From Lactarius indigo (Eukaryota; Basidiomycota; Agaricomycetes; Russulales; Russulaceae), in NCBI GenBank assembly GCA_025766275.1, contig JAFKAC010000002.1, positions 806,001 through 870,000 of the forward strand: a stretch of 64,000 nucleotides of DNA, given 5' to 3'. Below the pieces are notes generated by a model. That model was not told the origin of the DNA. It did no database searches and saw only the letters and a program-made list of their open reading frames with translations. Below, in pieces: positions 34,978-64,000 of this stretch (the first letter of the stretch is position 1; each line of letters starts with the position of its first letter). Made by a program: the position numbers and the translations under genes.

Positions 34978-35814
34978 GTGTGCGGCATGCGACACTCCGT
35001 GATACCAGCACATTTCATTCTCTCTATTTATTTTACTCGATAACTATTCCATCTTATTGTCAAGGTGTATTCTTAGAACAAACGCGAACGCGCCGAGCCC
35101 GTCACGAGGGGGGGCATCAACATACTGACTACATTTTTCCTCTCGATATCTATCGCCCTCGATTTCGGCCTTTGTGCCGCCTCTTTTATCCCCACCTGAC
35201 TCATTAATATGTGTTCATATCTTACTTTTTAATACTTTGATATCCTTTCTTGACAACGCGTTCATAAACGCGTCTAGTATGGTCATACTGATGTAATTTT
35301 GTGATTTCTGCCAATTTCGCTCGTCTCCGTCTCAGGCCTCACCTCCATTATCACTACATTCTATCACCCCTCCCTTGCCATTACTTTACCTCAAGGACCG
35401 GGTATGATTTACGTGTATTTTTTGATTGGATAGCCCTAGTCCCTGCCTGTGTGCCGTCATACGCAGACGTTCGTCAATAGATCGCACCTTGCCGGAGCCC
35501 ACACAGCCGGAACTGACAGCGCTGATCATCCACGCCACGAGCATTCCTGGCCGGCTATGATGACGACACGGGCGACCCTGATAACGACCATGGCGGTGCA
35601 GCCGCCAAATTACTTACGATGTGACGTTATCTAGGATATTGATCATAACATCGGTGTTTCAGACTGGCGTTCTGGCCAGTGGGTCGATGGCTTCGGTCAT
35701 GCAATTATTTCCTGTACAGTGGATACCTCACAACAAATGAGGGAAAATTAGCTGACAGTGCGACATTGTAGCTAGGAAAGGTACGATTGGGAAATATTGG
35801 ATGATATAACATAC

Positions 35815-36056
35815 ACCCCGTGGGAGCCAAAGTGCTGACAGATGTGTCAGGCATTTCAATACACTCTTAGTGAGTCTCGACAATCGCATTTACCTCATGA
35901 ACACAACCACCCGGACATGGCTATGGCGCTTACAGCCGCCTCACTCTCATCGCCCTGTTTCGCTGTCAGAATTGCTGTACCTGGGCTGCAGTCGTGAACA
36001 TCAGCAGGTGGCAGTTTTTCAGCTCGCACCTTGCCCGGACGGTGGAAGTAGATAAG
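35815..36056 (+). pseudogene. Partial duplicate of the DUF6534 gene 3' end
   Basis: The GGAGCCAAAGTGCTGA intron end and the exon with NTLLVSLDNRIYL repeat the sequence at about 34553-34620 of the neighbouring gene. The copy then diverges, with a shortened tail (stop at 36053). No upstream helices are found, so this is a truncated copy. Confidence 0.65.
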
Positions 36057-36759
36057 TCAGAATGAGAGACACCACTAATATATATCCGGTAGGTGGAATT
36101 TCCCGTTACAGGCGCCATCGCATACCAACGCTCCTGAACGGCTCAGGTATGCAGGAAGTCACAATGCAGGTCACGGTCTACTATTAGGCCTATTCCACCA
36201 CTACCGGCGGCATGGCGGGCCGGCTATCGGCCAGGACAAGTGCCGCGTGCGATACTCCGAGATGCCAGTACGTTTCTCCTTGCGTTTCTCTCTCGCACAT
36301 TTGAATTTTTGCCTCGGCCAATATTCTGTCTTATCTTCGTTGTTGTAAACGTGCATTCTCGGAACATGCGCAAGCGCGCCGATGTCACTAGGGAACGCAC
36401 CAGCATACCAACGACGTTTGTTTTTGTCTCGACTACTCAAGCGACTACTTATAATTTCGGAAAACTGAAAACATGGAAACCCCAAAACTGCAACCAGCGT
36501 TGATTCTGGGTACACCACGTAAAACATGTATCTATCGACTAGTAATAGACTATGCTAGTCAGTAGTTTCTTGGTTTCCGCACTTTTCTGATATTTCCTAG
36601 TTTCCCTTGTTTGTCTTTCGTCCTTCCACTAGGTTTCTGGGAAAAGGGACCACGACCTCACCCTTCAATCTCCGTGGCCCGCACTAACGATGCAGCTGCT
36701 GCCGAACGCGGTAGGATGTTGCACCGGAATGGCTTCACATACCTACAATACACTCTACA

Positions 36760-38717: not shown

Positions 38718-40227
38718 GAAATGAGGAGGTCCGGAGCGAACAGGGTGGATCGAACACACACTTTTATCGTGCGGCGACTCTCAGGAACCCAGGTCAGCGG
38801 ATATAACCGTTATAGGATCATGGGAACTTGGGGCGGGAGGTAAGTGGCATCTCCGCTGTTGCAGACGCCCATGAGTTCACAGACTGTAGCTGTCGGGTGA
38901 TACATAACCGTAATCACTTTGATCAAGTTTCTTTGTAGGAAACCAGCCGGCACCATACGGGGCTGAGTTATCAATAAGCGTACCTGATACGGATTTGTAT
39001 ACGGTCCAGTCGGAGAGAACATAGGAGCAAGTGTTCTTGCCTCCTACTAACCCCCATCATACCTACGCTGCGCGTCCCTCGTAAATGGACGAATAATATA
39101 CTTTATTCTCCTTACAATTTGACAGAACTTTGCTCTTGATAGACGCCCCAGACTCAGTCACGGAAAATTCGCAGGCACTGAGTACTGAGTACTGAGTACT
39201 GGGCTTGGTACCGGGTACACGTCGACATTCCAATCAGAAGATCAGATTGACTCTACACTGGCAGTTGGGGTCCCATAGAATAATGCGGTTTGTTCCTGAC
39301 TCAGTCCTACAGAATAACGTAGTTAGGCTTGGTTCAGCGGCAGCAGCAAAGCTACTGTAAAGGCCTATGATAGCATCAGCGACTCGATGGGTGTGTGAGG
39401 TACCGATGGGCTGCCAGGGTCTAACCCAAAACGGACAACTGACGCGGTGCCAGTACAGCCGGGGAGATAGGCCCGCTCGAGGCAGTCACACGCGTCCAGG
39501 TGGAGCTTCGATCGATCCGCTTTTCACGGCGTCACTGCACGCCATCCTAGAACATTATGTCGAGATCCCCACCCCACAAATCGATCTACTACGGGCTTGC
39601 CAAAGGCTGGTTCCTAGCAGTAGCGAAGTTGTGTGTCTGGTTAATGACCTGTTCCGTGTCGTCTCTACAATATTTCTTATGGAACAAATATGCCCTTGTC
39701 ATGGCACTTCCTTTCCTTCCATCCTCCCTGAAACAATTGTTTGAGCATATTTCTTTCCTTACCCGATTATTCACAGACAGGACAACGGCGAGGCACAGTA
39801 TCGCTCTTTCCCCCTCGGCTTCCAATCCTTCTCGTGCTGATAGCTACCTTCGTCGCCTCAAATATCCCTACCGTTTCCCATCGTCCAGGGAACCCCTTCA
39901 AGTGGTACTACACCTCTTCTCATTCTACACTCATACTTATCGTCCCACGTGGTGCGAGCATTCTCAAGGCCCTTATCATACGCATCAGCAAACCCCACGC
40001 TTCCCAAGGTTTCTGTTACAGGCGCTACGATCTGGCTCTCGCTCAAAACTCCAGAGTCAAAAGATATCACACCACTTCTCATGACGTAAACAGCCACGCA
40101 AGCGTGACAATGGCCTCGACCTTATCATTCATTCACTCTCGGTGGCCCGCACCAACGACGCTGCTGCTGCCGAACGCGGCAGAATATTGCACCGGAATGG
40201 CTTCACATACCTATAATACGCTTCACA
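38718..40227. other. Intergenic, no gene recognised
   Basis: Holds the promoter of P450 copy B and the 3' flank of copy C (40100-40227, shared with copies A and B). A short tandem repeat of CTGAGTA occurs at about 39178-39200. Frames at 39541-40277 have no family resemblance. Confidence 0.4.
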
Positions 40228-42188
40228 TTAGTTTTTCCTTGTTTCACGGGACGGGGGTGAAGCGACATACGATATAACACCCGACGAATACGCTTCCTCA
40301 GGTGGCCCGTCCTCGGTAGGGGTAATATCGAATGTGGCCAATATACTCGCAATATTAGACCACACACTTGCACGGGCGAGGAAGCGACCTGGACACTGTC
40401 GTACTCCGAAACCGAATGCCTGATTTGGGAAAGCTGGGGCATCTGGGGAAAGCCAGCGTTCGGGATGGAATCGGTCTGGCTCCGCGAAGATGGTAGGATC
40501 ATGCATCATTGCCCTGGAAATAGTCGTGATTGATTCACGGAGAAAGGGCACGTGTAAGAGGCGTACCAAATGTTTGGAATAATTGTCGAGCCTGCAGGAA
40601 TGTAATACCCCTCGTAGATGTCACTTGCTATGACTCTGTGTGGTACACCTGTTAGGATAATCATAGTGCCATCACCGTGAATATCGTGACATGTGAGAAC
40701 ACACCTAATGGTGTGACCGAATGCCAGCGTAATACCTCTTTAAACACTGCTTGCACATATGGAAGTTCGGCTTGATCCGAGAAATCTGGGAGGCGTGAAC
40801 CTCCAATGACCTGATCGATCTCAGCTTGGGCTTTCCTCTGGACTTCAGGGTACAGTGTCATTGCGAGGATGAATGTCTCCAGTGCAGAGACAGTCTACGA
40901 AATGCTTCAGCGAGTTAGTGGCGGATGCTCAACTTGAACTTACGGTGTCGGCTCCGCCCAAATACATTGAACCAGGGACGGCCTTAGCAACCCATATGTC
41001 TTCCTCTGTTGAATTCTCGTCAAGTTTAGATATAAGTTTCGCGGCAACAGAGGGAGCAGCCGTGCCCGCAGCCTGAATGAACATATTATTGATACAATGA
41101 GGAAAGAGACACCGAAAACACTCACGAGTTCCCTCTTGACTTTATCGCATGTGGTCTTCACAGCACCAACAACAATCGGGTACCATTCGCGTGCATATTT
41201 CTTGTAGCGTGCTCCTGGTAACCAGCTTGGCATTTTGATCACTGCGATTGTTTATCAGTCTCCAGACTCCCAGATACACATAAGCTGGTGGTAATTACAC
41301 CAGGGAATTAAATCGAGAAGCAAGGCTTCATTGGTTGTGCTGACTGCGCCGGCACGGAGAACTTTTTCTGCGTCTGCCACATATGGGTCATTCTCTGGGA
41401 GCACGTCGATCCCATAGGCAATCGACAAGATGATTTGTCCCGCCATACTTTTCTCTTGAAATCAACAAATATGTTCGACATAATCAGGATACCCACTGCC
41501 TGAGGTGCTGCGTGAAGTTGTCTGGGGACGAAAGCAGATTGCGAAGAAGACGGTGGACTGCTTGTTGCTCGAGCGGTTGATATGCCTCAAGATCGTCGGG
41601 ACCCAAGTGCGTCTGAAATTCACGGCGCGCGTGACGCCATGCAGTACCGTATCGTGTAAGGCCGATATTGTAGTCCATCCCAAAGCTTCGGGTACCAGTT
41701 ATCAGGGTATGACCCGAATGCTAGCCCATAAGACATACAGGTCATTTATAACGACCAAAGGTGGTCTTAGAAGTGCATTAGAATATTCACTAATAGAACC
41801 ATTGCGCTCTCACCTATCGGAATAGTTGGAGGAGCGCCTCTCAAGTAATTCGTTTGCGGCTTTCATCGAGTTGAGTATAACAATGTGCGATCCCATCACA
41901 TCGACGTGGATAACATCAGACCCTGACGAAGGCCAATTCAAAGTGAGCGGGGACAAAGTGAAGACGGGGAGAGTACACGTGTTCCAGACCTGACTCTCTA
42001 GACCAGTTTCTGTATGTGACCCATTCCTCTTGTGATGGCATGCTGAATAGATTGCCGACGACTGGCAGACGCTTGGGCCCTGGTGGGTAAGGTAGGCTAC
42101 GCTTGCTGGTACGCCATACGAGTAATGCCAAGCCACTAAAGCCCGCCGCGATGGCGAGGAGAAAGTCATATCGAGCGAGGTCGAGCAT
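40228..42188 (-). CDS. Cytochrome P450 monooxygenase, copy C
   Basis: Third tandem P450. The start [13 protein letters not shown] (42188; a further in-frame Met exists upstream at 42242) gives the anchor and the hinge [14 protein letters not shown]. Then come [55 protein letters not shown] in the I-helix across an intron, KEVLRWHSVTPLG (ExxR kept), PERW and FGFGVRQCPGR (haem ligand Cys kept, about 40377-40420). The stop at 40228 follows SRETRKN. Exons and splice sites line up with copies A and B. Closest in sequence to copy A at the N-terminus. Probable endoplasmic-reticulum enzyme of unknown substrate. Confidence 0.8.
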
Positions 42189-42889
42189 TTTGAGAGGGGG
42201 TTCAGAACCAGGGCGCATCGAACCCTTTCTTTTATCGCGCAACGGCCCTCAAGATATTAGGTCATGTTGTAGATCATGGGAACTTAGACCCAGCCTGAGA
42301 GCGCCAGCAGCCTAGTAAAATCGCGTAAGTGTCATCTCACGGACAGTGCCTAAGTCAATGTCATCCCACGACCCTTGCTGCGGGCTTTGTTCTTGCTGAC
42401 GGTAGCTGCCAGGGAGGAGAAATATAACGCAGCCCCGATTCTTTCATCCAGTCAGATCCTGAGTGACTGATTTAACAGAATTCCAGCCGTTTTCATAACG
42501 TGTGGAAGACTTGCTGGAAGACCTTGAAGAAAATACTTTGTTCGAGTTGCAACTTAGTCAAACTTAGCCGAGGCACACAGGCACGTGGATGGCCCCATGT
42601 AATGAGATCGGAAGGTCATGCGGTCATGTGGGACATGTGAAGTCAGATCTACGTCGTAGCCCCGACTTTTGATTTTGCCTACAGTAACTTTTACGTCCCA
42701 CAACTCGAGGCTCACTGGCATACTTTGAGGGGATATCTCCGCACAGGAAAGGAACTTCTTAGCCCTCGTATTGGTCTCATTTCTATCTCCATTGGTACTA
42801 ATTTCTGTTGATATCTACGGCAAACAAATATCGACACTTGGAGAAGGTAACAGCAAACGCGACATTTAGACGACAGAGCAACGCTGTGG
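42189..42889. other. Intergenic, no gene recognised
   Basis: Upstream region of P450 copy C; nothing further recognised. Confidence 0.4.
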
Positions 42890-43217
42890 GTCAACGACCA
42901 CAACCCCATCCTTTATTCTACGTAGCCCGCACCCACGACATACCTGCTGCCAAACGCGGAAGGACATTTCACCGGAATGACTTTATGTACCTGCAGTTGC
43001 TACTATATGAGCTTTTCCTTATCTCGTGGAATAGGTGCCGAATCGACGCACGCACCCCACGAAACCCGATGAATACGTCTCCTCAGGCTGCCCTTCCTCG
43101 CCGAGGTAAGGCCCGTAGGGGTAATATTGAAAGCAGCCAAAATTCCCACAATATTCAACCACAAGCTTGCGCACACAAGGACTCCGGACCGGACACTATC
43201 GTGCTCCGAAAACGAAG
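42890..43217 (-). pseudogene. P450 3'-end relic, fourth tandem copy
   Basis: Shares the P450 3' flank (CGACCACAACCCCATCC, CCGGAATGACTTTATG) and the last exon up to the haem loop. The frame is shifted so that the Cys-containing loop reads SEHDSVRSG, and an extra stretch interrupts the post-haem helix (about 43100-43115). No upstream P450 exons follow. Confidence 0.75.
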
Positions 43218-44247: not shown

Positions 44248-44355
44248 GCTTGGTCTTACATCCAATAAAATCACCTCTCCTTTCCCCTCCTCTGTTTGAT
44301 CCCCTGTTCTGTCTTGCCCTACTCACCCACACGCTTTCAAGCACGTACACCAGTC

Positions 44356-45150
44356 ATGCCCACCCTCTCCACATTCGACAATTCCCAGAGCACATTGACC
44401 TTCCCTCGCCCATTCGTCCACTCCCCCCGCGTAGCCTATGGCCTCCGTAAGCTCGATATGGGAAATAACGCCGACATCCGCGTTAACTCGACGGTCCAGG
44501 ACGCCACGAAGACTTCGGCCAACTGCAAGATCGCCCCCTGGGCTGATACCACTCTCTACAGTGCCGTAGTGGATGCGATCGCTCTCGCACCCGCTGATCT
44601 GGATTTCCTCACCGGCGAACACACGCGCAACCTCTATAGCAATCCTAATGACCCGGCATCTGTGCGCATTGACTTTGAGCGCCCGTTCGTCACTCCTCCC
44701 AAGGTCGTCGTATTCTTCAACAACATCAACCTCGGCAAGAATAACAACTGGCGTGTCAAGACTACTGCCGCAAGCGTCGACGTGAAGGGATTCACGCTCA
44801 ATATCGAGACCTGGTCAGACACGGTCCTCTACGCCGCGCGGGTTGGCTGGATTGCTTATCCAGAGGATCGCGAGCGCATTTTTAGCGCATCTGTTAACAC
44901 AATGGACGTTCGTCCTTGGAACCAACCTCAGCCAAAACAGAGTAACAAAATCGGATTCGGCGCTGTCGAGTTCTTCAAGGCGCCCTCGGTCTTTATCGCT
45001 TTTAACCAGCTCGACATTGACTACAAGGCCAATTTTCGCGTGAATTCTTACGTCGAGAATGTCACCACGACCGGTCTGGAGTGGCACATTGAATCCTGGG
45101 CCGACACGACCCTTTATTCTACTGGGGCCACTATCATCGCATTCAACTAA
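44356..45150 (+). CDS. H-type lectin-domain protein with three tandem domains
   Basis: Intronless 264-residue frame. It holds three copies of the H-type lectin fold (about residues 14-80, 100-165 and 195-263). Each copy opens with a Phe-rich strand (FPRPFVHSPRVAYGL, FERPFVTPPKVVVFF, FFKAPSVFIAFN) and contains an N-W/F-RV stretch (IRVNS, WRVKT, FRVNS). Each ends in the repeated WxDTxLY motif (PWADTTLYSA, TWSDTVLYAA, SWADTTLYST). H-type lectins bind GalNAc-type sugars in animals and Dictyostelium; binding here is inferred. No signal peptide or membrane segment is seen, as is usual for cytosolic fungal lectins. A TATA box and C/T-rich leader suggest strong expression. The sequence after the stop has a possible 3'-UTR intron (GTAAGT at about 45169 to TAG at about 45234). 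Confidence 0.85.
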   Translation: MPTLSTFDNSQSTLTFPRPFVHSPRVAYGLRKLDMGNNADIRVNSTVQDATKTSANCKIAPWADTTLYSAVVDAIALAPADLDFLTGEHTRNLYSNPNDPASVRIDFERPFVTPPKVVVFFNNINLGKNNNWRVKTTAASVDVKGFTLNIETWSDTVLYAARVGWIAYPEDRERIFSASVNTMDVRPWNQPQPKQSNKIGFGAVEFFKAPSVFIAFNQLDIDYKANFRVNSYVENVTTTGLEWHIESWADTTLYSTGATIIAFN

Positions 45151-46679
45151 CAATTGGCAGCATCAGCCGTAAGTTATTTTTTCTTCCGCTCTGACAGGAT
45201 AACTAACTTTCTGAATACCACGTCCGTTTACTAGGATGTTGGCGTTGGATCACCTCGGGCGATGGGCAATTTTTTCTTTCTTTTTTTCCGATGATTAAAG
45301 TGTGCCTTCTGTTACGCTTCGCTGAATCGACCGTATGATACTCTTTTCTTTGTGCTTCCGTAACCTGTTGACTCGACGTACTGAACTGACTCGGAGCATA
45401 TGACTCGATATCATGACTCGATTGTTACAGTTTTATGGACTGTCTGTAAACCTCCAGAGCCCTAAGTTCAACCTACTGTATTCAAATGCAGTAGGTTGTA
45501 TATGCATAAGACCGCAGGCCAAGTCATCGTTAGTTAACAAATGGTGCCAAGAATGCCGCAGTTGACTCAGACGGGGCATGAAGAGACAACGACGCAGCGG
45601 CGGATCGACAAGAGAAGGGTTCTGGAATACCTTTATAAGGGCCTGTCCGGCGCGGCTGGGCCCTGAAACAATGTTTCAATGGACCCTCTGTTTCCCACCT
45701 GGGAAACAGAGGCTGCGGCGAAACATTGTTTTAATTATCCAGGACCTCCGAACGCATTGACATACAAAAATAAAAACATTGTTTTGAATCGTCTCGTTAC
45801 ATGACAAAGCGTGACATCGTTACATCAAGATCCTGAGCACACCTACCAAATTGAGTGGCAAGCGCGAGAATCAGAGCCGCCATGAGGCTCATCCCCTCAC
45901 CACTTACTATATGGCATGCAAGTCCTGCCACGAGGCAAGCTGCAAATAACAACTATGGAGGCCACTACAGTGCCAGCAGCAAGGCAGTGTTATAGCAGGA
46001 TCCAAATCGATAGACCCCTTCAACAAATACACAAGGTGCGGACTTGAAAGTTTACTAGCGGGGTTCATAATTAAGTCAGAGGAAAAATGTTTTTAAAATT
46101 AGTTATGTCGCAAGAATCGAGTTATAAAATAGTTGTCCCAACATATTGCTCGGCAGCGTTGCCATCCCTCCCAGTTTGAGCACGCACACACTTTGCTCAA
46201 GATATATATACAACATCTCAGTCCCACATCATGTCTCACAGTATGCAGTTTCCTTGCAATGGTGTGGCACACCAGCCTGAAGCTGCGCTTGTTGAGCTGC
46301 GAGTCAAACTTCGTGAAGCATGGGACACTGAGAGTTAGTATATAACAGGGGTTTCCGAACCCGGTATGGCCCAAGGGTTCGGGCGGGTACGGAATTTGTG
46401 ACCCTCACGAAACCCTTACCCAATGTCACAGGTCACGGGTTTTGTTGGGCACGCAGGTCACCGGACCGGGCGCTGCTGCAACGTGTCAACAACCACCACA
46501 GCAACATTCATGTCCAATGCAGTCCTCGTCAACTGCATTCATTTGGTCCAGGAAACCCTCAAGAAGCTACTAGGCTAAGTGGTCTTGCCATGTCATTTTA
46601 GCTGACTTTTCGCTAACTACAATATTGTGTTTTTTTTTTTTTTACTGTCTAGGTTTAAACACGCTCTCTGGGCGCCACG

Positions 46680-46945
46680 ACATCACAACACCAACATGGT
46701 GCCACGACTCGACATCACCACGACACCATGACACAGACGCAGCGCCGACACCACGACATCAATATGGTGCCAACCGACGCGGTGCCGCGACACCACGACT
46801 CTGACACAGCGCCCTGGCACCATGACACTGACATGGCGCCACAATGTCACGATACCAATGCGGCGCTGTGACACCACAGCAGCAACGTGGTGCCACGACC
46901 CCGTAACACCGATACGGTGCTGCGACACCCACAACACCAACGCGG
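46680..46945. repeat. Degenerate minisatellite (GACACCACGACA-type units)
   Basis: Roughly 35-bp degenerate units built on GGTGCCACGAC / GACACCA / CAACATGG repeat about seven times inside the fold-back element. Open frames across it are a by-product of the repeat. Confidence 0.6.
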
Positions 46946-47260
46946 CTTGCAAGCCTCACCCACAACGCTATGGCCTTCTTAGATTACAACTATTAGTGTA
47001 GTACAGTTACTAAATATACACTAGTCCTGTCGGACACATGAAAAGGTAATTTTCACCATGCGGCCTGAGGTATCTTAGTCATATCACCCCGTTGCATGGC
47101 AAGCACGACTTAGCATTGAAAGCGATAAGTATAATTTTATTCATTTATTTGTATTTATAACATTTATTTTCTGTGGGAAAAAAGGCCGGCATGAGTCGTT
47201 TAAACCCCGGTACCACTGTACTCGAAATGGAAGGGGCCTATCGATTTGGATCCTGCTGTA

Positions 47261-47841
47261 ACAATATTTATACCCTTGCTCTCACTTAGTACAGCATAGA
47301 TACGATTATTGCTGAATATTGAAATGGAAGTCTAATTACTGTTATATGCGCGCACGCCTTATGAGTGCCAACGTGTGGAGCATATATTGTAACACAGGTG
47401 GTCACAGTCACTCTTGACACAGAGAAAGTCAAAGGAAAAAGAGGTCAGACCTCTTTTTCTGGTTGGCAGGGAGAATCTCATTCTTGTTTCTCAGGGCCTG
47501 TCCGGCAAACGCTTTCTTGCGCAAGACATGGGCCAAACCATAAACAATGTTTTAATTAATTGAGAATGAGAATGTGACGTGTTCGGCAAACCTTGTGTCA
47601 CGAGAGACTGAGAAACAAGAATGAGATTCTCCCTGCCAACCAGAAAAAGAGGTCTGACCTCTTTTTCCTTTGACTTTCTCTGTGTCGAGAGTGACTGTGA
47701 CCACCCGTGTTACAATATATGCTCCACATGTTGGCACTCATAAGGCGCGCGCGCATATAACAGTAATTAGACTTCCATTTCAATATTCAGCAATAATCGT
47801 ATCTACGCTGTACTAAGTGAGAGCAAGGGTATAAATATTGT
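47261..47841. mobile_element. Nested palindromic element with TA target duplication
   Basis: 581-bp element with about 235-bp inverted arms (ACAATATTTATACCC at both ends) flanked by TA (47259-47260 and 47842-47843). Deleting it restores CCTGCTGTAACACTGCC, which matches the other arm of the host element (CCTGCTATAACACTGCC). The TA duplication fits Tc1/mariner-type MITEs. Its spacer (47496-47607) holds a further fragment starting GGGCCTGTCCGG, related to 48185-48256. Confidence 0.75.
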
Positions 47842-48195
47842 TAACACTGCCTTGCTGCTGGCACTGTAGTGGCCTCCATAGTTGTTATTTGCAGCTTGCC
47901 TCGTGGCAGGACTTGCATGCCATATAGTAAGTGGTGAGGGGATGAGCCTCATGGCGGCTCTGATTCTCGCGCTTGCCACTCAATTTGGTAGGTGTGCTCA
48001 GGATCTTGATGTAACGATGTCACGCTTTGTCATGTAACGAGACGATTCAAAACAATGTTTTTATTTTTGTATGTCAATGCGTTCGGAGGTCCTGGATAAT
48101 TAAAACAATGTTTCGCCGCAGCCTCTGTTTCCCAGGTGGGAAACAGAGGGTCCATTGAAACATTGTTTCAGGGCCCAGCCGCGCCGGACAGGCCC

Positions 48196-48714
48196 TCAGT
48201 CTCTCATGACACAAGGTTTGCCGAACGCGTCACATTCTCATTCTCAATTAATTAAGGGCCTGTTCGGTTCAGATTCTTTTGAGAATCTGACACCAGATTC
48301 TTTCAGTGTGACATTACATAAGACACACCGTGTGTCTCATCTCATATTCTGAGAGAAGAGCATTCTCATCAACGGGTGACTCAGTATATGTTTGGTCTAT
48401 GGTGCACGCAGGATTTGGGGGATGTGAAGCCTCGCTTGCAGTCGTGCAAGCCTCCGCGGGGCGGGAGATGTCGTATGCGGGTCCGTGGCGATCGCGGACG
48501 TGTCGGTGTTGAAAGGCTAAGGCCGCGCGAGAGTGCAGCGAGGACGGGAACGGAAATGGTGGGCTACGGGTAGCCCTGCTGAGTTGAGTCAGCGCAAGTT
48601 GTTGGAAACAGTCGGGCCTGCTTCTGCGTGGCGCGAAACTTGGCATAGGGGCCACCCGGGTCGGGAACGCGTCGGGTTCGAGTTTCTAAGGCTGCGCGCG
48701 AGTGCGGCACGCTG
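48196..48714. other. Non-coding, with fragments of the same MITE families
   Basis: 48196-48256 repeats (inverted) the spacer of the element at 47261. A further GGGCCTGTTCGG terminus starts at about 48255. No gene is recognised up to the LTR at 48715. Confidence 0.45.
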
Positions 48715-49292
48715 TGTTACGCCCTAGCAGGGGCGTGGGTTCTAAAGGCTCTGAATCACACAAGTATCAAGCGAAGACCTCTGTTGTCTTATTGCTATGA
48801 AATACGAGTGATAAAGTGTGGCACAAGGTGCAGCACTACTCTGTAATGTAGGACTCCTCGTCCGAAGTGTCTAACACTTCTCTACACTTGATCTTGCTAG
48901 TGCACAGAGTATAACAGGTGTAACGCGTTGATATAGTTCAACTGCAAAGACTTCGAAGTGTCCTGGTTAGGGACTGAGGTAGGGGATGCACAAGAAGAGA
49001 GGGATAAGGCGAGGTCACACCAAAGTACGGAGGCAAGATTGCTAGATTGCAAACGAAGCCAAGTCTGGCTTCCTACGGTCTATGGTACAGGTTTATATAG
49101 GACAGGGTTCCAAACAACATGAACACAAGTCCACACAATATCAAAGAGACTAAACGGAGTAAACAGAAGTTCGGATCAAAGTAACAGCGCCACTAGTAAC
49201 AGTAGCTCCTTTGGTAACAAGGTATGGTACAGAAAGGGGAAAGCAGAGTGGAGACATACTGTGGCTTAGGTCCGAAGCGTCGGATCATAACA
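48715..49292 (-). repeat. 3' LTR of outer gypsy element
   Basis: 578 bp and nearly identical to 62325-62902. The bases just inside it on the minus strand, GAGAGGGGCTCA, are the likely polypurine tract. Confidence 0.93.
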
Positions 49293-49318: not shown

Positions 49319-51304
49319 CTAGAGTGCTTCGAAGTCCATCAGGTCATAGACATCGTTGTCTACGTCATTGGAGGGGGTGCTTTCGCGAGGGAGGGGGCAG
49401 CGATGTTGGCGAAGGAAGTTGAAGGGACCATGGGCCCCACACTTGCGACAATTTTCATACTTGGGGCACTTGATTTCTTCATGGCTGTTGCTGGTAAAAC
49501 ACTTGCCACACCACTGAGTGCGTTCTTCTGGGGCTGGCCAGAGGCACTGATAGGGGAAGTGGTCGGTGCTAGAACACCTCCAGCAGAACTTCTGTTTTTG
49601 AGGGCAGGCGAAGGAGAGGTGGTCTTCAGACTGGCACCTGTAACAAAGTCGAATGGTGCCAGTCTCCTTCTTGTTGGCTCTGCGCTTGCGTCTCTTCTTC
49701 CTTTCTGCAGAGGGGCTAGGTCCTTCTGGTTCGTCGTGGAGTCGTGGCATGGAGTGGTAGCGAGGTGGAGCAGGGGCAGGAATGGGGTGGACTTCAAAGG
49801 GGTGAGTTTCTTCTTCCGGAGGAGGGGGGTGTAGTGTGAGCCATCGGTCTGCAATCCGGACATAGGCCTTGTGTTCTTGCAGCCTTCTTCGGGTGCTGGT
49901 TAGTTGCATGTCCATGTTGAGGAGGTGCCTTTTGAGGGGCTCCATCGTCTTGTACAGGCCTTCAATCTCCTTTCGGAGGGCCTTCTGGTTTCGCAAGAGT
50001 CGGCGAGTCCTGGAGATTTCTGCTGTGAGGCGGTCATCTTTAAGGTCTTCTAGGACTTCATCGACTTGTCTGGCTGTGGGGGAAGCTTCGTCCAAGTTCT
50101 GCATCTGAGCTGGGGTGATGGGGGGAGTTGGGTTGTGGGGGTTGTCGTCTCTGGGAAGGAGGAAAAGGGGGAGGCCATAATGAGGGAGGTTTTTGCCCAT
50201 GGTGCCGATGACATCTTCTTTGTTTTCACTGATCTTGATCCATTTGGCATCCTTTCGGATGTACGAGGTTGGGTCAGCGTCGTCAGGGATGAGGAAGTGG
50301 ACATAGCGGCTGCTCCAGGGGTCATTCAAGAAGAAGGGGTAACCAGGGTCGTCGTCTTCTTCAGCAGCGATGTGCATCCTTTCGTAGTTAATGGGGAGTG
50401 CGTCCATGATTGGGTCGTTGATTATTTCGCTGAGACGAGCCATGGTCACTCTAGGATCAGGGGGGGAGGTGGTAGGTCGGTGTATCTCGGGAGTAGGGGG
50501 AGCTGTGTGTCCAGGAGGGGGAACACGAAGGGCTATTCCTCCTCCTTCTGTTTCTATGACGCTGGGCAGGGTGGGATCGATGGGTTGTGGTTCCTGGATG
50601 AGTGAAGGCAAGGAAGGGGGTCGTGCTGGGAAGGGAGAATAGCCAGAGGAGGGTGTGACAGAGGGTGTTTCGTCAAAGGAGCCTCTTTCCATGGCACGAG
50701 CAACAAGACGTTCTACAGAGGAGGAGCGAGAGGGCATGGTGAGGAAGCTAGTGGGGAAGGTGGTTGCTGTTCGTACTGTTACTTCCTTTCGTTTTAACCA
50801 TTGCTTTGCTCCTTCGCTTCTGGGGTTGCTTTCAAAGTGTTCCTGAATAAGTTCTGGGGCGTTGAGGTTCTTTTCTGGTTCCCAACTGTTGTGTGCATCG
50901 GAGTATCCCTTCCACCTGATTAGGAACTGTAACTGGTTCCTGTGGCGTCGTGTTTCTAGTATTTTCTCGACTTCCCACTCCTGTTCTCCATCTACTAGAT
51001 CTGGGGGTGGTTCCGTAAAGTTCTTTCCATGTATGGAGGTTTCTTTGTATGGCATCAGGAGTGACGCATGGAATACTGGGTGGATCCACCACTGATGGGG
51101 AAGTTTCAGGGCATATGTGGTGGCGGAGATCTTCTTTGTGACCCTGAAGGGTCCATATCTTTTTGGGGCTAACTTGAAACTAGGGTGCGTTGTTTTCAAG
51201 TTCCTGGCATCCAGCCACACACTATCTCCTTCTGTGTGTTGTTCGAAGCGAGAGGATCCTTTGTAGAGTGACTGTGCATGGGTAATTGCTGCTTGGGCGG
51301 TCCT
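49319..51304 (-). CDS. Outer gypsy pol, C-terminal part: integrase end, chromodomain and zinc-knuckle extension
   Basis: Continues the pol frame interrupted at 57542. After the integrase C-terminal region (LAPKRYGPFRVTKKI, HPVFHASLLMPY) comes a chromodomain (EWEVEKILETRR, FLIRWKGYSDAHNSWEP), typical of chromoviruses, which steers integration to marked chromatin. The frame then stays open for about 470 more residues. That extension has a Pro/Ser-rich stretch, a likely coiled coil (ISRTRRLLRNQKALRKEIE) and a Cys/His cluster near the end: CYRCQSEDHLSFAC, CWRCSSTDHFPYQC and CGKCFTSNSHEEIKC, the first two exact C-x2-C-x4-H-x4-C knuckles. The stop is at 49319. This extension is absent from the inner element, whose pol ends soon after the chromodomain. 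Confidence 0.9.
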   Translation of the reverse strand, partial: RTAQAAITHAQSLYKGSSRFEQHTEGDSVWLDARNLKTTHPSFKLAPKRYGPFRVTKKISATTYALKLPHQWWIHPVFHASLLMPYKETSIHGKNFTEPPPDLVDGEQEWEVEKILETRRHRNQLQFLIRWKGYSDAHNSWEPEKNLNAPELIQEHFESNPRSEGAKQWLKRKEVTVRTATTFPTSFLTMPSRSSSVERLVARAMERGSFDETPSVTPSSGYSPFPARPPSLPSLIQEPQPIDPTLPSVIETEGGGIALRVPPPGHTAPPTPEIHRPTTSPPDPRVTMARLSEIINDPIMDALPINYERMHIAAEEDDDPGYPFFLNDPWSSRYVHFLIPDDADPTSYIRKDAKWIKISENKEDVIGTMGKNLPHYGLPLFLLPRDDNPHNPTPPITPAQMQNLDEASPTARQVDEVLEDLKDDRLTAEISRTRRLLRNQKALRKEIEGLYKTMEPLKRHLLNMDMQLTSTRRRLQEHKAYVRIADRWLTLHPPPPEEETHPFEVHPIPAPAPPRYHSMPRLHDEPEGPSPSAERKKRRKRRANKKETGTIRLCYRCQSEDHLSFACPQKQKFCWRCSSTDHFPYQCLWPAPEERTQWCGKCFTSNSHEEIKCPKYENCRKCGAHGPFNFLRQHRCPLPRESTPSNDVDNDVYDLMDFEAL

Positions 51305-51696
51305 TGTCACGCCACTGTCGGGGCGTGCGTCGAGTCGGTCTGTAACAGGTCCTGCCTAAGGCAAAGGATACTGAGTCGGTCCGCTGCTGAGCAGAACGGC
51401 ACCTAGGTCTGCGGGTGTTCCTTGATATAGCTCAAGGCAACAAGGCTTCAGAGAAGAGGGCTGTGATAGAGATGAGAGGAAGGCACTGAGGGGACTGGAC
51501 AGTATATTGACGAAGCCAAAGCTAAGGACATACAGGGTGTGCTACAGGGTTTATATAGCTAGTGTCCAGGGGTGCCAGCGAGGCAATACAATGCCAGCGA
51601 GACAACTGCCAGCAAGACAACTGCCAGCGGAGCAAAGAAGTGAAGGAAGAATGGAAAAGAAGAGAAGGAGGGGCAAAGTATGGGGCGTTCATGACA
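51305..51696 (-). repeat. 3' LTR of inner gypsy element
   Basis: 392 bp, identical by eye to 57150-57541. The adjoining AACGGGGGTAA on the minus strand is the likely polypurine tract. Confidence 0.95.
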
Positions 51697-55408: not shown

Positions 55409-57115
55409 CTAAAAATCCTCGTCGGTGAAGAGGGCGTCGAGGATGGCCTCCTTTTCATCGTTTTTCATGGCGCGGACCTGGGCGACGAAGCTGTCGCCAT
55501 TCTTCTTGGGCTGGGTCGGTACGGAGGTGCTGGGGGCGGGTGCTACTGGTGCTGAGATTGGTTCGACTTCGGCGATGCGTGCGGAAGTTGTATTTCCGCG
55601 ACGGTTGTCGTTCTGGCGGATCGTTGTTGCCCCGCCGCTGGTTTGGCCCGTTGATCGTTTTGGGCAATCGCGCGATAAGTGGCCTTTGCCGAAGCAGCGG
55701 AAGCAACGGCCTTCTGAGCGGCAACGTTGCATTTCTTCGTCGGTCAGCGCGATACGAGCGCGATCGATGTCCATTGCATCAGGGTCGCGGATCGGGGTCG
55801 TGGTCTGCTGACTGGGTTGGTTATTGGTGCGTCGTCCTCCTCCTTGGTTGCTACTCGAATTGAGCAGCTGAAACCATTCCTGTTTAGTTTTTCCGCCAAT
55901 CTTTTTGCCCCCATCGTTGAGGCCTACACAAGCGCGAAGCATCGCGTACTTCCGTTGTTCTTTTTGGGCTGATTCGACCCATTGGGTAAAGGTTTCAGGT
56001 ACGGTGTCTCGTTTCAAGATGGCCGATAAGAGACCACGCGGCAATCCTCCTGAATAGAGGTCGACCGTTGCTGCGGCGTCGAGAGCATATCCTGCCTTCG
56101 CGGCAAGATTCTGGAATGTCGCTGTATACGTGTCAAGGTCTGATCCCTTCATTTGGAGTGCTTTTAGAAGCTGGTAAGCGTCCTGTTTTTCCGTGACGTT
56201 GGTGTATGCTGATTTAAAGCTAGTGACGAAGTCGTTCCATAGTGACTCATCGGTTTTTGGGATAGCGGCTGTCGTCGTGCCACTAACTTTTGTTCGGAGC
56301 CCCTCGAGTTGGGTGTCAACCCAATCGTCGACATTGGGTCCTCGGATGAAGGATAGCGCGAGGTACACGTGTTGGTAGGGTGATCTGATAACGGATGAAT
56401 CTTCATTCATGCCGCGATACAGGTCGAATTCCCGTAGGAACTTCTTCGATTTATCGTGGGAGCCATCGAATATGGCTGGGGAGTTGCCGCTGAGCTTTCC
56501 TCCCGAGGAGGCGTTGGCTGCGGATCCTGAGGACATAGTGGGTACTGATGGGGTGATAACGGGTGGTGCGGTGACGGTAAGAAGAGGTGGGAATACAGGT
56601 GAGACGGGTGCCGAAGCAGCTGCGATCTGCTGCCAGAAGTCTGGGGCGTCGATGGGTACGTTCTCTAGAACTGTGTCGAGTTCGTTTTTGATTGGTGCTG
56701 ACACGTCAGCAGGTGCTTCCTCGGTGGGAACACTGTCCTCAAGAGGAGAGTCTACGCGGATTGGTGCGGTTGGTTCAGGGAAAGTTTCGGGGTGGTCGAG
56801 GTGATACCGTTCGGGGTTCTCGTCGTCCTCTGGGTTCCACCAGCCAAGACCGACGTCGTTATTTCGGGGAATAGCAAGGGATGTCTTTGTGAAGAATTCG
56901 GTACCACGCCTTTCAAGGACGTGCCAACGGTGGTTTATGAAGTCGAGATTGTAAATTCGTCCGTTGAGGAGGGCTCGGTAGCCTCCGCGTCTGTCAACGT
57001 GTGAGGTGTTCCAGTAGGCACACCCTAGTACGTGTGTCGGTAAGTCGTCTTGCCAGCGGCGGAATACTTCGGTCCACTGGTCGTCGGGAAGGAGATCGAG
57101 CTCGATGCTAGCCAC
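55409..57115 (-). CDS. Inner gypsy gag, with GTG-started N-terminal extension
   Basis: Open for 568 codons from GTG at 57115 (setting GCCACCGTGGC, a perfect Kozak context but for the first base). The first ATG in any frame after the predicted RNA start is 56536 (MSSGSAAN), about codon 194. The extension is conserved with the outer element (GLGWWNPEDDENPE against GLGWWNEEDEQNPE), so it is coding. After 56536 come the gag capsid-like region (FDGSHDKSKKFLREFDLY, FIRGPNVDDWVDTQ) and one CCHC zinc knuckle, CFRCFGKGHLSRDCP, for RNA packaging. The stop at 55409 follows DEDF. The likely products are a short gag from the ATG and a longer one from GTG. Confidence 0.88.
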   Translation of the reverse strand: MASIELDLLPDDQWTEVFRRWQDDLPTHVLGCAYWNTSHVDRRGGYRALLNGRIYNLDFINHRWHVLERRGTEFFTKTSLAIPRNNDVGLGWWNPEDDENPERYHLDHPETFPEPTAPIRVDSPLEDSVPTEEAPADVSAPIKNELDTVLENVPIDAPDFWQQIAAASAPVSPVFPPLLTVTAPPVITPSVPTMSSGSAANASSGGKLSGNSPAIFDGSHDKSKKFLREFDLYRGMNEDSSVIRSPYQHVYLALSFIRGPNVDDWVDTQLEGLRTKVSGTTTAAIPKTDESLWNDFVTSFKSAYTNVTEKQDAYQLLKALQMKGSDLDTYTATFQNLAAKAGYALDAAATVDLYSGGLPRGLLSAILKRDTVPETFTQWVESAQKEQRKYAMLRACVGLNDGGKKIGGKTKQEWFQLLNSSSNQGGGRRTNNQPSQQTTTPIRDPDAMDIDRARIALTDEEMQRCRSEGRCFRCFGKGHLSRDCPKRSTGQTSGGATTIRQNDNRRGNTTSARIAEVEPISAPVAPAPSTSVPTQPKKNGDSFVAQVRAMKNDEKEAILDALFTDEDF

Positions 57116-57135: not shown

Positions 57136-57149
57136 TTAGCTTTGGCTTA
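57136..57149 (-). promoter_or_regulatory. Self-priming primer-binding site, inner element
   Basis: The bases directly inside the 5' LTR (57136-57148) are the exact 13-base reverse complement of 57358-57370 in the LTR, which lies about 32 nt past the TATATAA box (57396-57402), where the RNA should start. This is the Tf1-type self-priming arrangement; no tRNA-like TGG start is present. Confidence 0.8.
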
Positions 57150-57541
57150 TGTCACGCCACTGTCGGGGCGTGCGTCGAGTCGGTCTGTAACAGGTCCTGC
57201 CTAAGGCAAAGGATACTGAGTCGGTCCGCTGCTGAGCAGAACGGCACCTAGGTCTGCGGGTGTTCCTTGATATAGCTCAAGGCAACAAGGCTTCAGAGAA
57301 GAGGGCTGTGATAGAGATGAGAGGAAGGCACTGAGGGGACTGGACAGTATATTGACGAAGCCAAAGCTAAGGACATACAGGGTGTGCTACAGGGTTTATA
57401 TAGCTAGTGTCCAGGGGTGCCAGCGAGGCAATACAATGCCAGCGAGACAACTGCCAGCAAGACAACTGCCAGCGGAGCAAAGAAGTGAAGGAAGAATGGA
57501 AAAGAAGAGAAGGAGGGGCAAAGTATGGGGCGTTCATGACA
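57150..57541 (-). repeat. 5' LTR of inner gypsy element
   Basis: 392 bp with a TATATAA box at 57396-57402 (minus strand). It drives transcription leftward. No ATG occurs from the predicted RNA start to gag codon 194. Confidence 0.95.
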
Positions 57542-60425: not shown

Positions 60426-62117
60426 TCACAGGTCGGCATCACAAAAATCCTGATCTAAGGCATAGTAGCGTCTCTTTTCATCCTCAGTCATGCCTTGGAC
60501 GAGTGCATGGGCTTGTCGGACTTTATCTTCGGTTGTGGTAGCAGCCACTGATGAGGTGCTTGCTTCTGGGGTGTATGGGGGTGCAGTGTCCGCTTCCTGG
60601 GTGTCTGTGGCTCTGGCTTTGGTTTGGTTGGTGGTGTTTTGTCGTTGACAGTTCCTGGCCATGTGTCCTTGTTGTCTGCATTTGAAGCAGCGTCCTTCTT
60701 TCATGAGGGCTTTCTTTTCTTCTTCAGTAAGCTTCTTAAAGGGGGTGGAGGTGGTGGCATCTACATCCATCGCATTTGGGTCCCGCTTTGGTCGTCCTTG
60801 GTGGACATTCTGGGTTGGTCCTGGGTTTCTATTCCCTGGTCTGGCTTTTAGTAGCTTCCAGCGTTGGTGTTCTGCTCTGGCAGCGGTTTGCCACTCGTCC
60901 ATGGTGTTTGGGATGGTGGTTCGCATAAGGCAAGCACGATACAGTCCTGTGGGTAGTCCTCTTTTGAAGAATTCCACCGTTCCAGGGGCATCTCTTGCCC
61001 ATCCTGCTATTCCTGCAAGGTGTTCGAAGTCGAGGATGTAACTGTCCAATGCTCCACCCTGCATCGTCAAACTGATGAGCTTCTGATAGGCTCTTTCTTT
61101 GTTTAGAGTGTCGGTCCAGTCTCTGTCGAAGGTGTCAAGAAAACCGTCCCAAAGATCTTTGCTGTTTTTGGTGAGGGCTTTGGTGGGGTCTGCTAGTGCC
61201 GCTTCCATGTCATCTTCGGTTTGGTTGACCCACAGCTGTACACCGGGTCCTTTGAACATTGTAAGGGCGAATAGTACCCGTGCATAAGGTTCTTTGATAA
61301 GTTCATTCTCGCTGTTTAACTTGATGTATCGTAGTAGTTCTCTTTTGAACTGACCACTCTCTGTTCTATCTCCGGTGAACGGAGTAGGGGGCGCTCCTTT
61401 GAGTCCTCCTGAGCTCGTTGTTGGTGTTCCTCCTGTTCCGGTGCTTGAGCCGGTACCTGTGCCAGTGCCTGTGGCGTTTATGGCTGACATGATAAGTGTT
61501 GGCTGTGGTGTGATGGGGATCTGGGGTGGTTCGACTGGGGAGGGCAATCTGATTGGTGGTAGTGGGGCTGGGAATCCTTCTTCCGCTGGGGATGGTTCTA
61601 TCCAGATAGGGATAGTGGGGCTGGCTTGTGACGAAGCTTGTGTGGGTACTGTGATGTCTAGGCGGTGTTCTGAGGAGTGGGATAGTTCTGAGTGTGATTC
61701 CGCTTCGTCTGAGCTGGGTTCTTCTTCTGATGAGTCTTGTTGTAGTCCGTATGTTCCCCTGGTGTTTTTTGGTGCTGAGGATGATTGTTGTGTGGGCGTT
61801 TCTGGGTTCTGTTCGTCTTCTTCGTTCCACCAGCCTAGTCCTTCAGCAAATCTGTGTGGTGTGATGTTTATGGCTCTGGTGTGGTATGTATTCTGAAAGT
61901 ATCGGAGGATGTACCAGTTGTTGTTGATGAATTCCACTGGTCTGAGTTCGCCTTTGATGAGGCACTTGTAACAAGGTGGTCTGCCTGATGTTGTGGCCCA
62001 GCGAGCTCCTTTTCCTAGTTGACTGCTTTTAACGTGGTGTGGGAGGTCGTCTTGTGTTCTGGTTGTGACTGGGGTCCAATCGTTGTCTGATTCAAAGGTG
62101 ACACTGATGCTAGCCAC
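60426..62117 (-). CDS. Outer gypsy gag, with GTG-started N-terminal extension
   Basis: Open for 563 codons from GTG at 62117 (A at -3, G at +4). The first ATG in any frame after the predicted RNA start is 61490 (MSAINATG), about codon 210, just before a Gly/Thr-rich stretch. The upstream part has the conserved blocks NNNWYILR and GLGWWNEEDEQNPE, shared with the inner element, and an acidic Ser/Glu-rich stretch. Downstream are the capsid-like segment (FTGDRTESGQFKRELLRY, FKGPGVQLWVNQ) and a CCHC knuckle, CFKCRQQGHMARNC. The stop at 60426 overlaps the pol frame by a few bases; unlike in the inner element, no obvious slippery run lies in the short -1 overlap. Confidence 0.88.
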   Translation of the reverse strand: MASISVTFESDNDWTPVTTRTQDDLPHHVKSSQLGKGARWATTSGRPPCYKCLIKGELRPVEFINNNWYILRYFQNTYHTRAINITPHRFAEGLGWWNEEDEQNPETPTQQSSSAPKNTRGTYGLQQDSSEEEPSSDEAESHSELSHSSEHRLDITVPTQASSQASPTIPIWIEPSPAEEGFPAPLPPIRLPSPVEPPQIPITPQPTLIMSAINATGTGTGTGSSTGTGGTPTTSSGGLKGAPPTPFTGDRTESGQFKRELLRYIKLNSENELIKEPYARVLFALTMFKGPGVQLWVNQTEDDMEAALADPTKALTKNSKDLWDGFLDTFDRDWTDTLNKERAYQKLISLTMQGGALDSYILDFEHLAGIAGWARDAPGTVEFFKRGLPTGLYRACLMRTTIPNTMDEWQTAARAEHQRWKLLKARPGNRNPGPTQNVHQGRPKRDPNAMDVDATTSTPFKKLTEEEKKALMKEGRCFKCRQQGHMARNCQRQNTTNQTKARATDTQEADTAPPYTPEASTSSVAATTTEDKVRQAHALVQGMTEDEKRRYYALDQDFCDADL

Positions 62118-62312
62118 GATTGTGGTCTGTCTTGGGTGCTGGTTTGTGTAAGGGGATGGCTGAAGCGGCCTCTTGTGTCAAGGAGGATCCGTCGCCCGGC
62201 TATGCCGTCGTTTCTGGTTCTGTGGAGTGTCTGGTTGTTGGCTGATGCGTCCTCTTGGATCGTCGCCCACTCTGCTGTGTGGCAGTAGTGTCTTGGGTGT
62301 GTTGGGAGTTGT

Positions 62313-62324
62313 AGACTTGGCTTA
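62313..62324 (-). promoter_or_regulatory. Self-priming primer-binding site, outer element
   Basis: Bases 62313-62323, directly inside the 5' LTR, are the reverse complement of 62666-62676 in the LTR, 33 nt past the TATATAA box at 62703-62709. Confidence 0.78.
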
Positions 62325-62902
62325 TGTTACGCCCTAGCAGGGGCGTGGGTTCTAAAGGCTCTGAATCACACAAGTATCAAGCGAAGACCTCTGTTGTCTT
62401 ATTGCTATGAAATACGAGTGATAAAGTGTGGCACAAGGTGCAGCACTACTCTGTAATGTAGGACTCCTCGTCCGAAGTGTCTAACACTTCTCTACACTTG
62501 ATCTTGCTAGTGCACAGAGTATAACAGGTGTAACGCGTTGATATAGTTCAACTGCAAAGACTTCGAAGTGTCCTGGTTAGGGACTGAGGTAGGGGATGCA
62601 CAAGAAGAGAGGGATAAGGCGAGGTCACACCAAAGTACGGAGGCAAGGTTGCTAGATTGCAAACGAAGCCAAGTCTGGCTTCCTACGGTCTATGGTACAG
62701 GTTTATATAGGACAGGGTTCCAAACAACATGAACACAAGTCCACACAATATCAAAGAGACTAAACGGAGTAAACAGAAGTTCGGATCAAAGTAACAGCGC
62801 CACTAGTAACAGTAGCTCCTTTGGTAACAAGGTATGGTACAGAAAGGGGAAAGCAGAGTGGAGACATACTGTGGCTTAGGTCCGAAGCGTCGGATCATAA
62901 CA
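62325..62902 (-). repeat. 5' LTR of outer gypsy element
   Basis: 578-bp LTR with a TATATAA box at 62703-62709 on the minus strand; it pairs with 48715-49292. Confidence 0.93.
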
Positions 62903-63205: not shown

Positions 63206-63669
63206 TGTTACGGTTTTCGCATCGGACCCTTACTGCACCGGTTGTGGCTACGGCTGTAAGGTATATTAGTCACGGACTCGGGGTTTACGGTAGGAGTTAG
63301 GCGGTAGAGGATGACTCGATCCTAGTACAGGTAGTAGTAGTATTAGGATTGCGGTACTTACGCGATACGTTGGACGCTACGTTACGGTGACTCATAGCAG
63401 CGCTTGAAAGCCTGCTCTTCTTGTATTTAAGGTAGCTGCGGAAGACCAAGATACGCCATCTTGGTCTTCTTCAATCGTCACTTCTAGTCTCTTCTATTCT
63501 CATCTCTAAAGACGCGCCTTCCATCAGAGGAAGAGCCCTATCCTGAACCTAGTGTCTGCGTACATCTAGAACCCGCCTTCGAGCCATACGCCTCTGCGCG
63601 TGACCAGCTAAGTCATAAAGAGTCGCCTTAATCAAGCTCAAGTCGAGCTAACGTCGTGACGGCGTTACA
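63206..63669 (+). repeat. 5' LTR of third gypsy element
   Basis: 464 bp with TG...CA borders and a TATTTAA box at 63424-63430. The partner LTR lies outside the window, so the borders rest on the terminal signature and the self-priming match. Confidence 0.75.
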
Positions 63670-63689
63670 TTAAGACCAAGATACTCATT

Positions 63690-64000
63690 GTGGCGACTAT
63701 TAACACCAGAGAACAGTGGACGAATTTCCGTCCTTATCATCTAGACCGAAGAGGAGACCGTAACGTACCAACCCGATTCCTAGGAGCAGCCAGGTGGAGA
63801 GACCGAGGAGACGAAACCGGATATTTTGTGGAATTCAACGGACCCACGAGGTTCAGACCTGTTGAGTTCAATTTCGATCACCTGTGCTGGGTAGAAATTA
63901 CGTGGAACCCCATAGACCACCGCTGGGACGTCATCAGGCCAGCAGGAAGACAATACCAGTGCGACATCGACGCATGCGAACTCAATTCACGGGCCGACTG
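63690..64000 (+). CDS. Third gypsy gag, N-terminal fragment from GTG
   Basis: Open to the window edge (311 nt) from GTG at 63690 (ATTGTGGCG: A at -3, G at +4). It resembles the extensions of the other two gags: VATINTREQW against VASIELDLLPDDQW, and HRWDVIRP against HRWHVLER. No in-frame ATG is present. The only ATG in any frame from the predicted RNA start onward is at 63973, out of frame. Confidence 0.72.
   Translation, partial: MATINTREQWTNFRPYHLDRRGDRNVPTRFLGAARWRDRGDETGYFVEFNGPTRFRPVEFNFDHLCWVEITWNPIDHRWDVIRPAGRQYQCDIDACELNSRAD

What the first reader, a model, noticed from the sequence alone, without database searches (positions are those of the whole stretch)
61488..62676. AUG-free 1.2-kb leader and GUG-started gag extension in the outer gypsy element
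Seen directly: reading the minus strand from the predicted RNA start (about 62676) to 61490, no ATG occurs in any frame, while the opposite strand of the same stretch has about 22. The gag frame is open from GTG at 62117 in a strong Kozak setting, and about 210 codons precede the first Met. The extension is conserved in sequence with the inner element, so it is translated or was until recently. Selection against AUG in all three frames suggests scanning ribosomes start weakly at GUG (long gag) and otherwise reach the first AUG (short gag). This would resemble the non-AUG glyco-gag of some retroviruses but in a fungal retrotransposon.
Basis: partly seen in the sequence, partly recalled or inferred. 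Interest (0 to 1): 0.88.

Follow-up and report, generated by a model that had tools for sequence, protein, structure and literature searches.

The report
GUG-started long Gag in mushroom retrotransposons
In what is likely a mushroom genome, three families of retrotransposons keep a protein-coding extension of their gag (capsid) gene that opens at GTG rather than ATG and is depleted of ATG in every reading frame, so one RNA is predicted to give a scarce long and an abundant short Gag protein.

Summary
In detail: the minus strand from 62676 to 61491 has no ATG (about 10 expected; 21 on the other strand), and the gag frame is open from GTG 62117, 209 codons before the first Met.

It is not a quirk of one copy. 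Three families in the window share it: A (outer), B (inner), C (right edge, + strand). All predict a Tf1-like self-primer at the RNA 5' end (57 of 57 copies complementary, two by paired changes). By exact patterns the start codon is GTG at 122 of 133 A and 185 of 187 C sites genome-wide; all exceptions are ATG, and three of five read are broken. The extension is under purifying selection (dN/dS 0.16 in B, 0.05 in C). Non-triplet length changes occur just upstream of GTG in all three families. Out-of-frame ATGs are depleted in the extension (0/21, 13/57, 6/96 observed/expected) but not in gag downstream.

Most likely, weak GUG initiation makes long Gag; ribosomes that pass reach the gag AUG and make short Gag. 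Translation itself is untested. The principle is known (RTBV, PEG10, MLV glycogag); this GUG form, kept across self-priming fungal Ty3 families, was not found described.

The parts
62325..62902 (-). 5' LTR of outer element (family A), 578 bp, TG...CA; 3' LTR at 48715-49292; 5-bp target duplication CAGCG
62666..62676 (-). Predicted first 11 nt of family A RNA (self-primer AGACTTGGCTT)
   Evidence: complementary to the primer binding site
62313..62323 (-). Family A primer binding site AAGCCAAGTCT
61491..62676 (-). ATG-free stretch: 559-nt leader plus 627-nt extension
62115..62117 (-). GTG, predicted start codon of long Gag (A at -3, G at +4)
61491..62117 (-). Gag N-terminal extension, 209 codons, no Met
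60426..61490 (-). Short Gag from first ATG to TGA; weak Retrotrans_gag and CCHC matches, both below Pfam cut-offs
57150..57541 (-). 5' LTR of inner element (family B), 392 bp; 3' LTR 51305-51696, identical; target duplication AGGAC
57358..57368 (-). Predicted first 11 nt of family B RNA (AGCTTTGGCTT)
57138..57148 (-). Family B primer binding site AAGCCAAAGCT
56537..57115 (-). Family B extension, 193 codons from GTG in GCCACCGTGGC, no ATG
55409..56536 (-). Family B short Gag; Retrotrans_gag just above the Pfam cut-off (24.3 vs 24.1), CCHC below it
63458..63468 (+). Predicted first 11 nt of a family C element RNA (ATCTTGGTCTT)
63672..63682 (+). Family C primer binding site AAGACCAAGAT
63690..64000 (+). 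Start of family C extension from GTG (ATTGTGGCG), running off the window; one out-of-frame ATG at 63974

Best explanation
In three families of predicted self-priming Ty3/gypsy elements the gag reading frame carries a conserved, Met-free extension of about 170-210 codons that begins at a conserved GTG, and scanning ribosomes are predicted to start there weakly to make a long Gag while most would pass on to the first AUG and make the short Gag. Shown by sequence: the GTG and its A(-3)/G(+4) context are kept in nearly all copies looked at; codon constraint covers the extension (clear in B and C); length changes off the triplet are tolerated just upstream of the GTG; ATG is depleted from the predicted RNA start to the gag AUG and not beyond it. 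Inferred: that RNA starts at the self-primer, that GUG is decoded by initiator tRNA, that both products are made with long Gag the minor one, and that the extension serves as an accessory domain on a minority of Gag molecules in the particle.
For: (1) Start codon: A at -3 in 57 of 57 copies with GTG (8 A, 29 B, 20 C); G at +4 too, but A and B copies were located by the motif GTGGCTAG, so +4 counts freely only in the B alignment and in C. Whole-genome patterns with exact flanks: A 122 GTG vs 11 ATG, C 185 GTG vs 2 ATG. In the dN/dS sets GTG is invariant in 16/16 (B) and 20/20 (C), while only 23 of 130 (B) and 22 of 197 (C) fourfold sites are invariant and 0 of 6 other majority-GTG Val codons in C; A (6/6) is too young to tell (220 of 257 fourfold sites invariant). 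(2) Translation: dN/dS of extension 0.155 (95% 0.119-0.197) in B and 0.050 (0.031-0.073) in C; gag core 0.074 and 0.040. (3) Frame boundary: LTR end to GTG differs off the triplet in 1 of 8 A, 3 of 29 B and 6 of 20 C copies. (4) ATG depletion: leader 2 vs 38.4, 3 vs 34.0, 4 vs 32.6 expected (A 8, B 20, C 20 copies); out-of-frame ATG in extension 0 vs 21.2, 13 vs 56.6, 6 vs 96.1, but in gag core 81 vs 63.5, 148 vs 167.6, 305 vs 285.2 (A 6, B 17, C 20 copies). (5) RNA 5' end: primer and binding site complementary in 57 of 57 copies, two B copies by paired changes. (6) Relatives elsewhere: P0002 and P0005 (Lactarius) and P0006 (unnamed ENA record) read Val where the start codon is expected; codon not seen.
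Against: No RNA, ribosome or protein data. 11 of 133 A and 2 of 187 C sites carry ATG at the start codon, and two of the five A cases read (L079, L080) are open as far as read. One of 30 fetched B loci (L035, decayed) also has ATG. 20 of 48 copies carry at least one ATG before the gag Met, 12 of 20 in B. Family A dN/dS is imprecise (0.22, 0.07-0.52) and its second half is not clearly constrained (0.63, 0.19-2.7). P0001 starts with Met at this position, which may be a GTG read as Met or a real ATG. P0003 and P0004 do not reach the start; P0004 and P0006 each have one Met inside the extension part. Copies are related, so counts are not independent; C copies were picked for long frames.
Confidence: 0.83

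Rival explanations
1. Only the long Gag is made, from GUG; the downstream AUG is not a used start.
For: Extension and gag core are both constrained and in one frame.
Against: It does not explain why out-of-frame ATGs are depleted across the extension but near expectation right after the first Met, in three families.
Confidence: 0.1
2. The extension is untranslated leader; translation starts only at the first AUG, and the open frame is a relic.
For: A scanning leader is expected to avoid ATG anyway. Of five group D copies with the same primer site whose ATGs were listed, two (L046, L048) have none from the predicted RNA start to position 1165; L053 has one at 751, and L041 and L044 have one or more.
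Against: dN/dS 0.16 (B) and 0.05 (C), long open frames from GTG whatever the phase upstream, and Val at the expected start in relatives from other sources.
Confidence: 0.03
3. An upstream AUG is supplied by splicing or by transcripts starting upstream in U3 or host DNA.
For: Family A has an ATG in U3 at 62730. Lactarius gene models join upstream residues to this domain.
Against: 40 of 48 copies have no ATG at all between the predicted RNA start and GTG. Primer/binding-site pairing places the RNA end downstream of U3. The upstream residues of P0002/P0005 and of P0006 fit the primer site read in two different frames, so they look like modelling artefacts (inference, DNA not seen).
Confidence: 0.04

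Closest known systems
Rice tungro bacilliform virus ORF I (Caulimoviridae; PMC5902531, passages seen)
   Same: Non-AUG start (AUU, about 10% of ribosomes) on a long ORF devoid of internal AUG, so that ribosomes scan about 900 nt on to later AUGs.
   Different: Separate ORFs, AUU, and a shunt around a leader with short uORFs; here one frame, GUG, and in most copies no AUG uORF because the leader lacks ATG.
PEG10, a retrotransposon-derived mammalian gene (PMC2800197, passages seen); its place in the sushi group is recalled
   Same: In-frame upstream non-AUG start plus AUG start on a gag-derived frame, both shown used.
   Different: CUG, only 34 residues upstream, host gene; here GUG, about 170-210 residues, in mobile elements.
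MLV glycogag (PMC5120145, listing with start of abstract seen; CUG start is recalled)
   Same: Longer Gag with an N-terminal extension (88 residues) made beside normal Gag.
   Different: Glycogag is glycosylated (abstract) and membrane-bound (recalled); here no membrane-like stretch in the three extensions tested (highest 19-residue hydropathy 1.33).
Tf1/sushi self-priming Ty3/gypsy elements (PMC7175516, passages seen)
   Same: First 11 nt of RNA complementary to the primer site; chromodomain and Tf2-1-like SH3 domain in pol of A and B.
   Different: No GUG-started Gag extension was found described in the paper searches made (listings).

Membership tests
Tf1/sushi-type self-priming chromoviruses | First 11 nt of RNA complementary to the primer site after the 5' LTR | tested here: met
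   57 of 57 copies in three families, two with paired changes; RNA end itself is predicted
Tf1/sushi-type self-priming chromoviruses | Ty3/gypsy pol with chromodomain | tested here: met
   A and B: RVT_1, RNase H, integrase H2C2, SH3_Tf2-1, Chromo above cut-off; C pol only seen in part and not scanned
Tf1/sushi-type self-priming chromoviruses | Primer is cut from the RNA 5' end and used | not testable with these tools
   needs biochemistry
Glycogag-like Gag | In-frame N-terminal extension of gag without AUG | tested here: met
Glycogag-like Gag | Signal/membrane segment in the extension (recalled as defining) | tested here: not met
   no hydrophobic segment in one copy each of A, B, C
RTBV-like leaky scanning | Long ORF cleared of AUG after a non-AUG start, ending at a used AUG | tested here: inconclusive
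   clearing and its end point met by counts; use of either start could not be tested
RTBV-like leaky scanning | Ribosome shunt with a short uORF before a stem | tested here: not met
   no ATG in the leader, hence no AUG uORF, in 40 of 48 copies

The most novel reading that the evidence does not exclude
A conserved GUG start behind and across an AUG-cleared region is an ancestral, programmed way of setting the ratio of two capsid proteins in self-priming fungal Ty3 elements, and in families B and C the same 5'-end/primer-site duplex that starts reverse transcription sits only 7-22 nt before the GUG and gates whether an RNA is translated or copied.
Probability: 0.3. Interest if true: 0.85.

Novelty: new variant of a known kind. 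Interest (0 to 1): 0.72.

Why it matters
Few retroelements are known to fix the ratio of two Gag forms at initiation, and a conserved GUG start is rare in eukaryotes (both recalled). These elements exist in many copies of different ages, which gives a natural mutational scan of a non-AUG start site and of leaky scanning over 170-210 codons. It also shows a blind spot: gene finders that demand ATG miss this domain's start or attach doubtful upstream residues, as in the Lactarius models, so the Gag N-terminus of such elements may often be mis-annotated.

Tried and rejected
Structure of the extension: the family A model reached mean pLDDT 62 (residues 1-80 about 80, beta-rich) and Foldseek gave no PDB match at E<=0.001; the family C model was poor (pLDDT 41) and was not searched. 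No PDB sequence match at E<=1; no Pfam match inside the A or B extension (the C extension was not scanned).

A stable hairpin downstream of GUG that would boost initiation: local folding energies show no shared peak. Splicing and U3 starts: see rivals. Relatives in viral contigs: none; phages: none. Protein searches: A extension 1 hit of 43 candidates, B none of 82, C 5 of 113. That ATG-start family A copies are one successful subfamily was checked on five of 11: they differ from the eight GTG copies by 1.8-15.6% and from each other by 4.5-15.7%; L082 and L083 have stops and L081 a frameshift within the extension.

Rows dropped: B, 30 fetched loci plus the window copy; L033 (start cut off by an insertion; the other half, L058, reads GTG) and L035 (ATG, no primer found) are left out of the 57; nine more are left out of the ATG counts because the frame breaks before a Met at codon 150 or later. 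dN/dS used 6 A, 16 B, 20 C copies with long frames. The 8 A copies are the top 8 of 40 scored. The primer in A and C copies was located by its exact sequence, in B by a looser pattern; the only copies lost to this are L033 and L035.

Full report
Observation. The minus strand from 62676 to 61491 has no ATG; 10.2-12.2 are expected and the other strand has 21. The gag frame is open from 62177 to 60426; GTG lies at 62117 and the first Met at 61490. LTRs of the outer element are 62325-62902 and 48715-49292 (99.8% alike); the inner element (LTRs 57150-57541 and 51305-51696, identical) sits inside the outer pol.

Where the RNA starts. In the outer element (family A) the 11 nt AGACTTGGCTT at 62676-62666 is the exact complement of AAGCCAAGTCT right after the LTR. 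Tf1 uses this layout for self-priming, with the first 11 nt of its RNA pairing to the primer site (PMC7175516, passages). Families B (inner) and C have their own versions. Over 57 copies (8 A, 29 B, 20 C) the pairing is perfect in 57; two B copies (L024, L031) changed on both sides together. This makes the predicted RNA start credible, though unmeasured.

Three families. The inner element has the same plan: GTG at 57115 in GCCACCGTGGC, no ATG from 57368 to 56537. A third, family C, begins at the right edge of the window on the + strand (GTG 63690) and has many copies (1683 first-look candidates, 150 scored). Pol identity is 58% between A and B over 800 aa; the piece of C-type pol in L058 is 35% identical to A and 44-55% to B. 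Gag cores share 26-31%; extensions share 31% (A/B, 203 aa) and 24% (B/C, 149 aa), while A/C gave no clear pairwise match. Extensions begin V-A-S or V-A-T in the copies listed. Homologues of the C extension occur in Lactarius (4 of 5 hits), so the host is likely a mushroom of that kinship (inference).

Start codon. A stands at -3 in 57 of 57 GTG copies and G at +4 (A and B copies were located by GTGGCTAG, so +4 is free only in C and in the B alignment). Of 30 fetched B loci, 28 have GTG, one (L035) ATG, and one (L033) is cut by an insertion. Whole-genome counts with exact flanking letters give A 122 GTG to 11 ATG and C 185 GTG to 2 ATG. No CTG or TTG was found by those patterns; in A the G is in a CpG, so G-to-A decay is expected. 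Five of the 11 A exceptions were read: L082 and L083 have stops and L081 a frameshift within the extension, L079 and L080 stay open as far as read, and they do not form one close group. In the dN/dS sets GTG is invariant while 107 of 130 (B) and 175 of 197 (C) fourfold sites vary; A is too uniform to be informative.

The extension is coding. dN/dS is 0.155 (B, 16 copies) and 0.050 (C, 20 copies), against 0.074 and 0.040 in the gag core; in A (6 copies) 0.219 with a wide interval. Spacing from LTR end to GTG differs by non-triplet amounts in 1 of 8 A (the window copy), 3 of 29 B and 6 of 20 C copies, while the frame from GTG is long and open in the A and C copies concerned and in the three B copies (423-571 codons), so the constrained frame does not run on upstream. 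In Lactarius models P0002 and P0005, and in P0006, Val stands where the start is expected (V-A or V-Q before TTR.QW, as in copy L058), after residues that fit the primer site read in different frames (inference from protein). P0003 and P0004 do not reach the start. Between the start region and the gag Met, P0001, P0002, P0003 and P0005 have no Met in the part present, P0004 and P0006 one each. P0001 (50% identical to A) begins with Met there, which can be GTG read as a start.

ATG clearing. Leaders: 2, 3, 4 ATG against 38.4, 34.0, 32.6 expected by dinucleotide shuffles (A 8, B 20, C 20 copies). Extensions, out-of-frame ATG against synonymous shuffles that keep the protein: 0 vs 21.2, 13 vs 56.6, 6 vs 96.1; the same test on the gag core gives 81 vs 63.5, 148 vs 167.6, 305 vs 285.2 (A 6, B 17, C 20 copies). 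Clearing thus ends at the first Met. 28 of 48 copies have no ATG at all before it (A 6 of 8, B 8 of 20, C 14 of 20); clearing is weakest in B. Copies are related, so I rest on three families agreeing rather than on the summed counts.

Mechanism. The simplest account is weak GUG initiation giving long Gag, with leaky scanning over about 500-630 nt to the AUG of short Gag. RTBV does the same in principle: AUU, about 10% use, ORFs devoid of AUG, about 900 nt scanned (PMC5902531, passages). PEG10 uses a CUG and an AUG on one gag-derived frame (PMC2800197, passages). The ratio here is unknown. The function of the extension is unknown; its first ~110 residues are the most constrained part (dN/dS 0.095 in B, 0.040 in C, no nonsynonymous difference in A), and no Pfam or PDB relative was found for A or B. 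I propose an accessory domain displayed on a minority of Gag in the particle (inference). In single-sequence folds of one copy each, the 5' end pairs with the primer site, which ends 22 nt (B) and 7 nt (C) before GUG but about 195 nt before it in A (and coordinates); this could couple translation to reverse transcription, which is speculative.

Novelty. Paper searches (listings only) showed nothing that describes a GUG-started Gag in a fungal Ty3 element; the library holds open-licence papers only. I rate it a new variant of a known kind.

Noticed in passing
60426-60438 and 55409-55454 (minus): Gag and pol overlap in the -1 frame in A and B near GGATTTTT; family C has GGGTTTT (L059). In A the -1 frame has a stop just after that site, so pol of A may start another way.
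   Followed up: partly
49322-50830 (minus): Outer element pol carries a long C-terminal tail after the chromodomain, with several zinc-knuckle-like motifs by eye (one weak Pfam match); the inner pol ends soon after its chromodomain.
   Followed up: partly
L039, L041, L044, L046-L057; also upstream of B copies in L042, L043, L045: A fourth group (D) shares the primer site of B; the one long frame scanned (L046) has no Pfam match. Possibly non-autonomous riders.
   Followed up: partly
G000 C20, C190, C222, C261: Family A 5' ends occur as divergent pairs at the same 3.74-kb spacing in four places, suggesting a palindromic derivative.
   Followed up: no
L058 and L033 (C35): A family C-type element is inserted in a family B element 10 bases after the first base of its GTG.
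   Followed up: partly
45638-48255: Nested inverted repeats (355 nt, 100%; 236 nt, 98%; 61 nt, 97%) beside the outer element.
   Followed up: no
30132-43182: Three diverged direct copies of a unit of about 2 kb, with part of a fourth; an H-type lectin ORF follows at 44269-45147.
   Followed up: no
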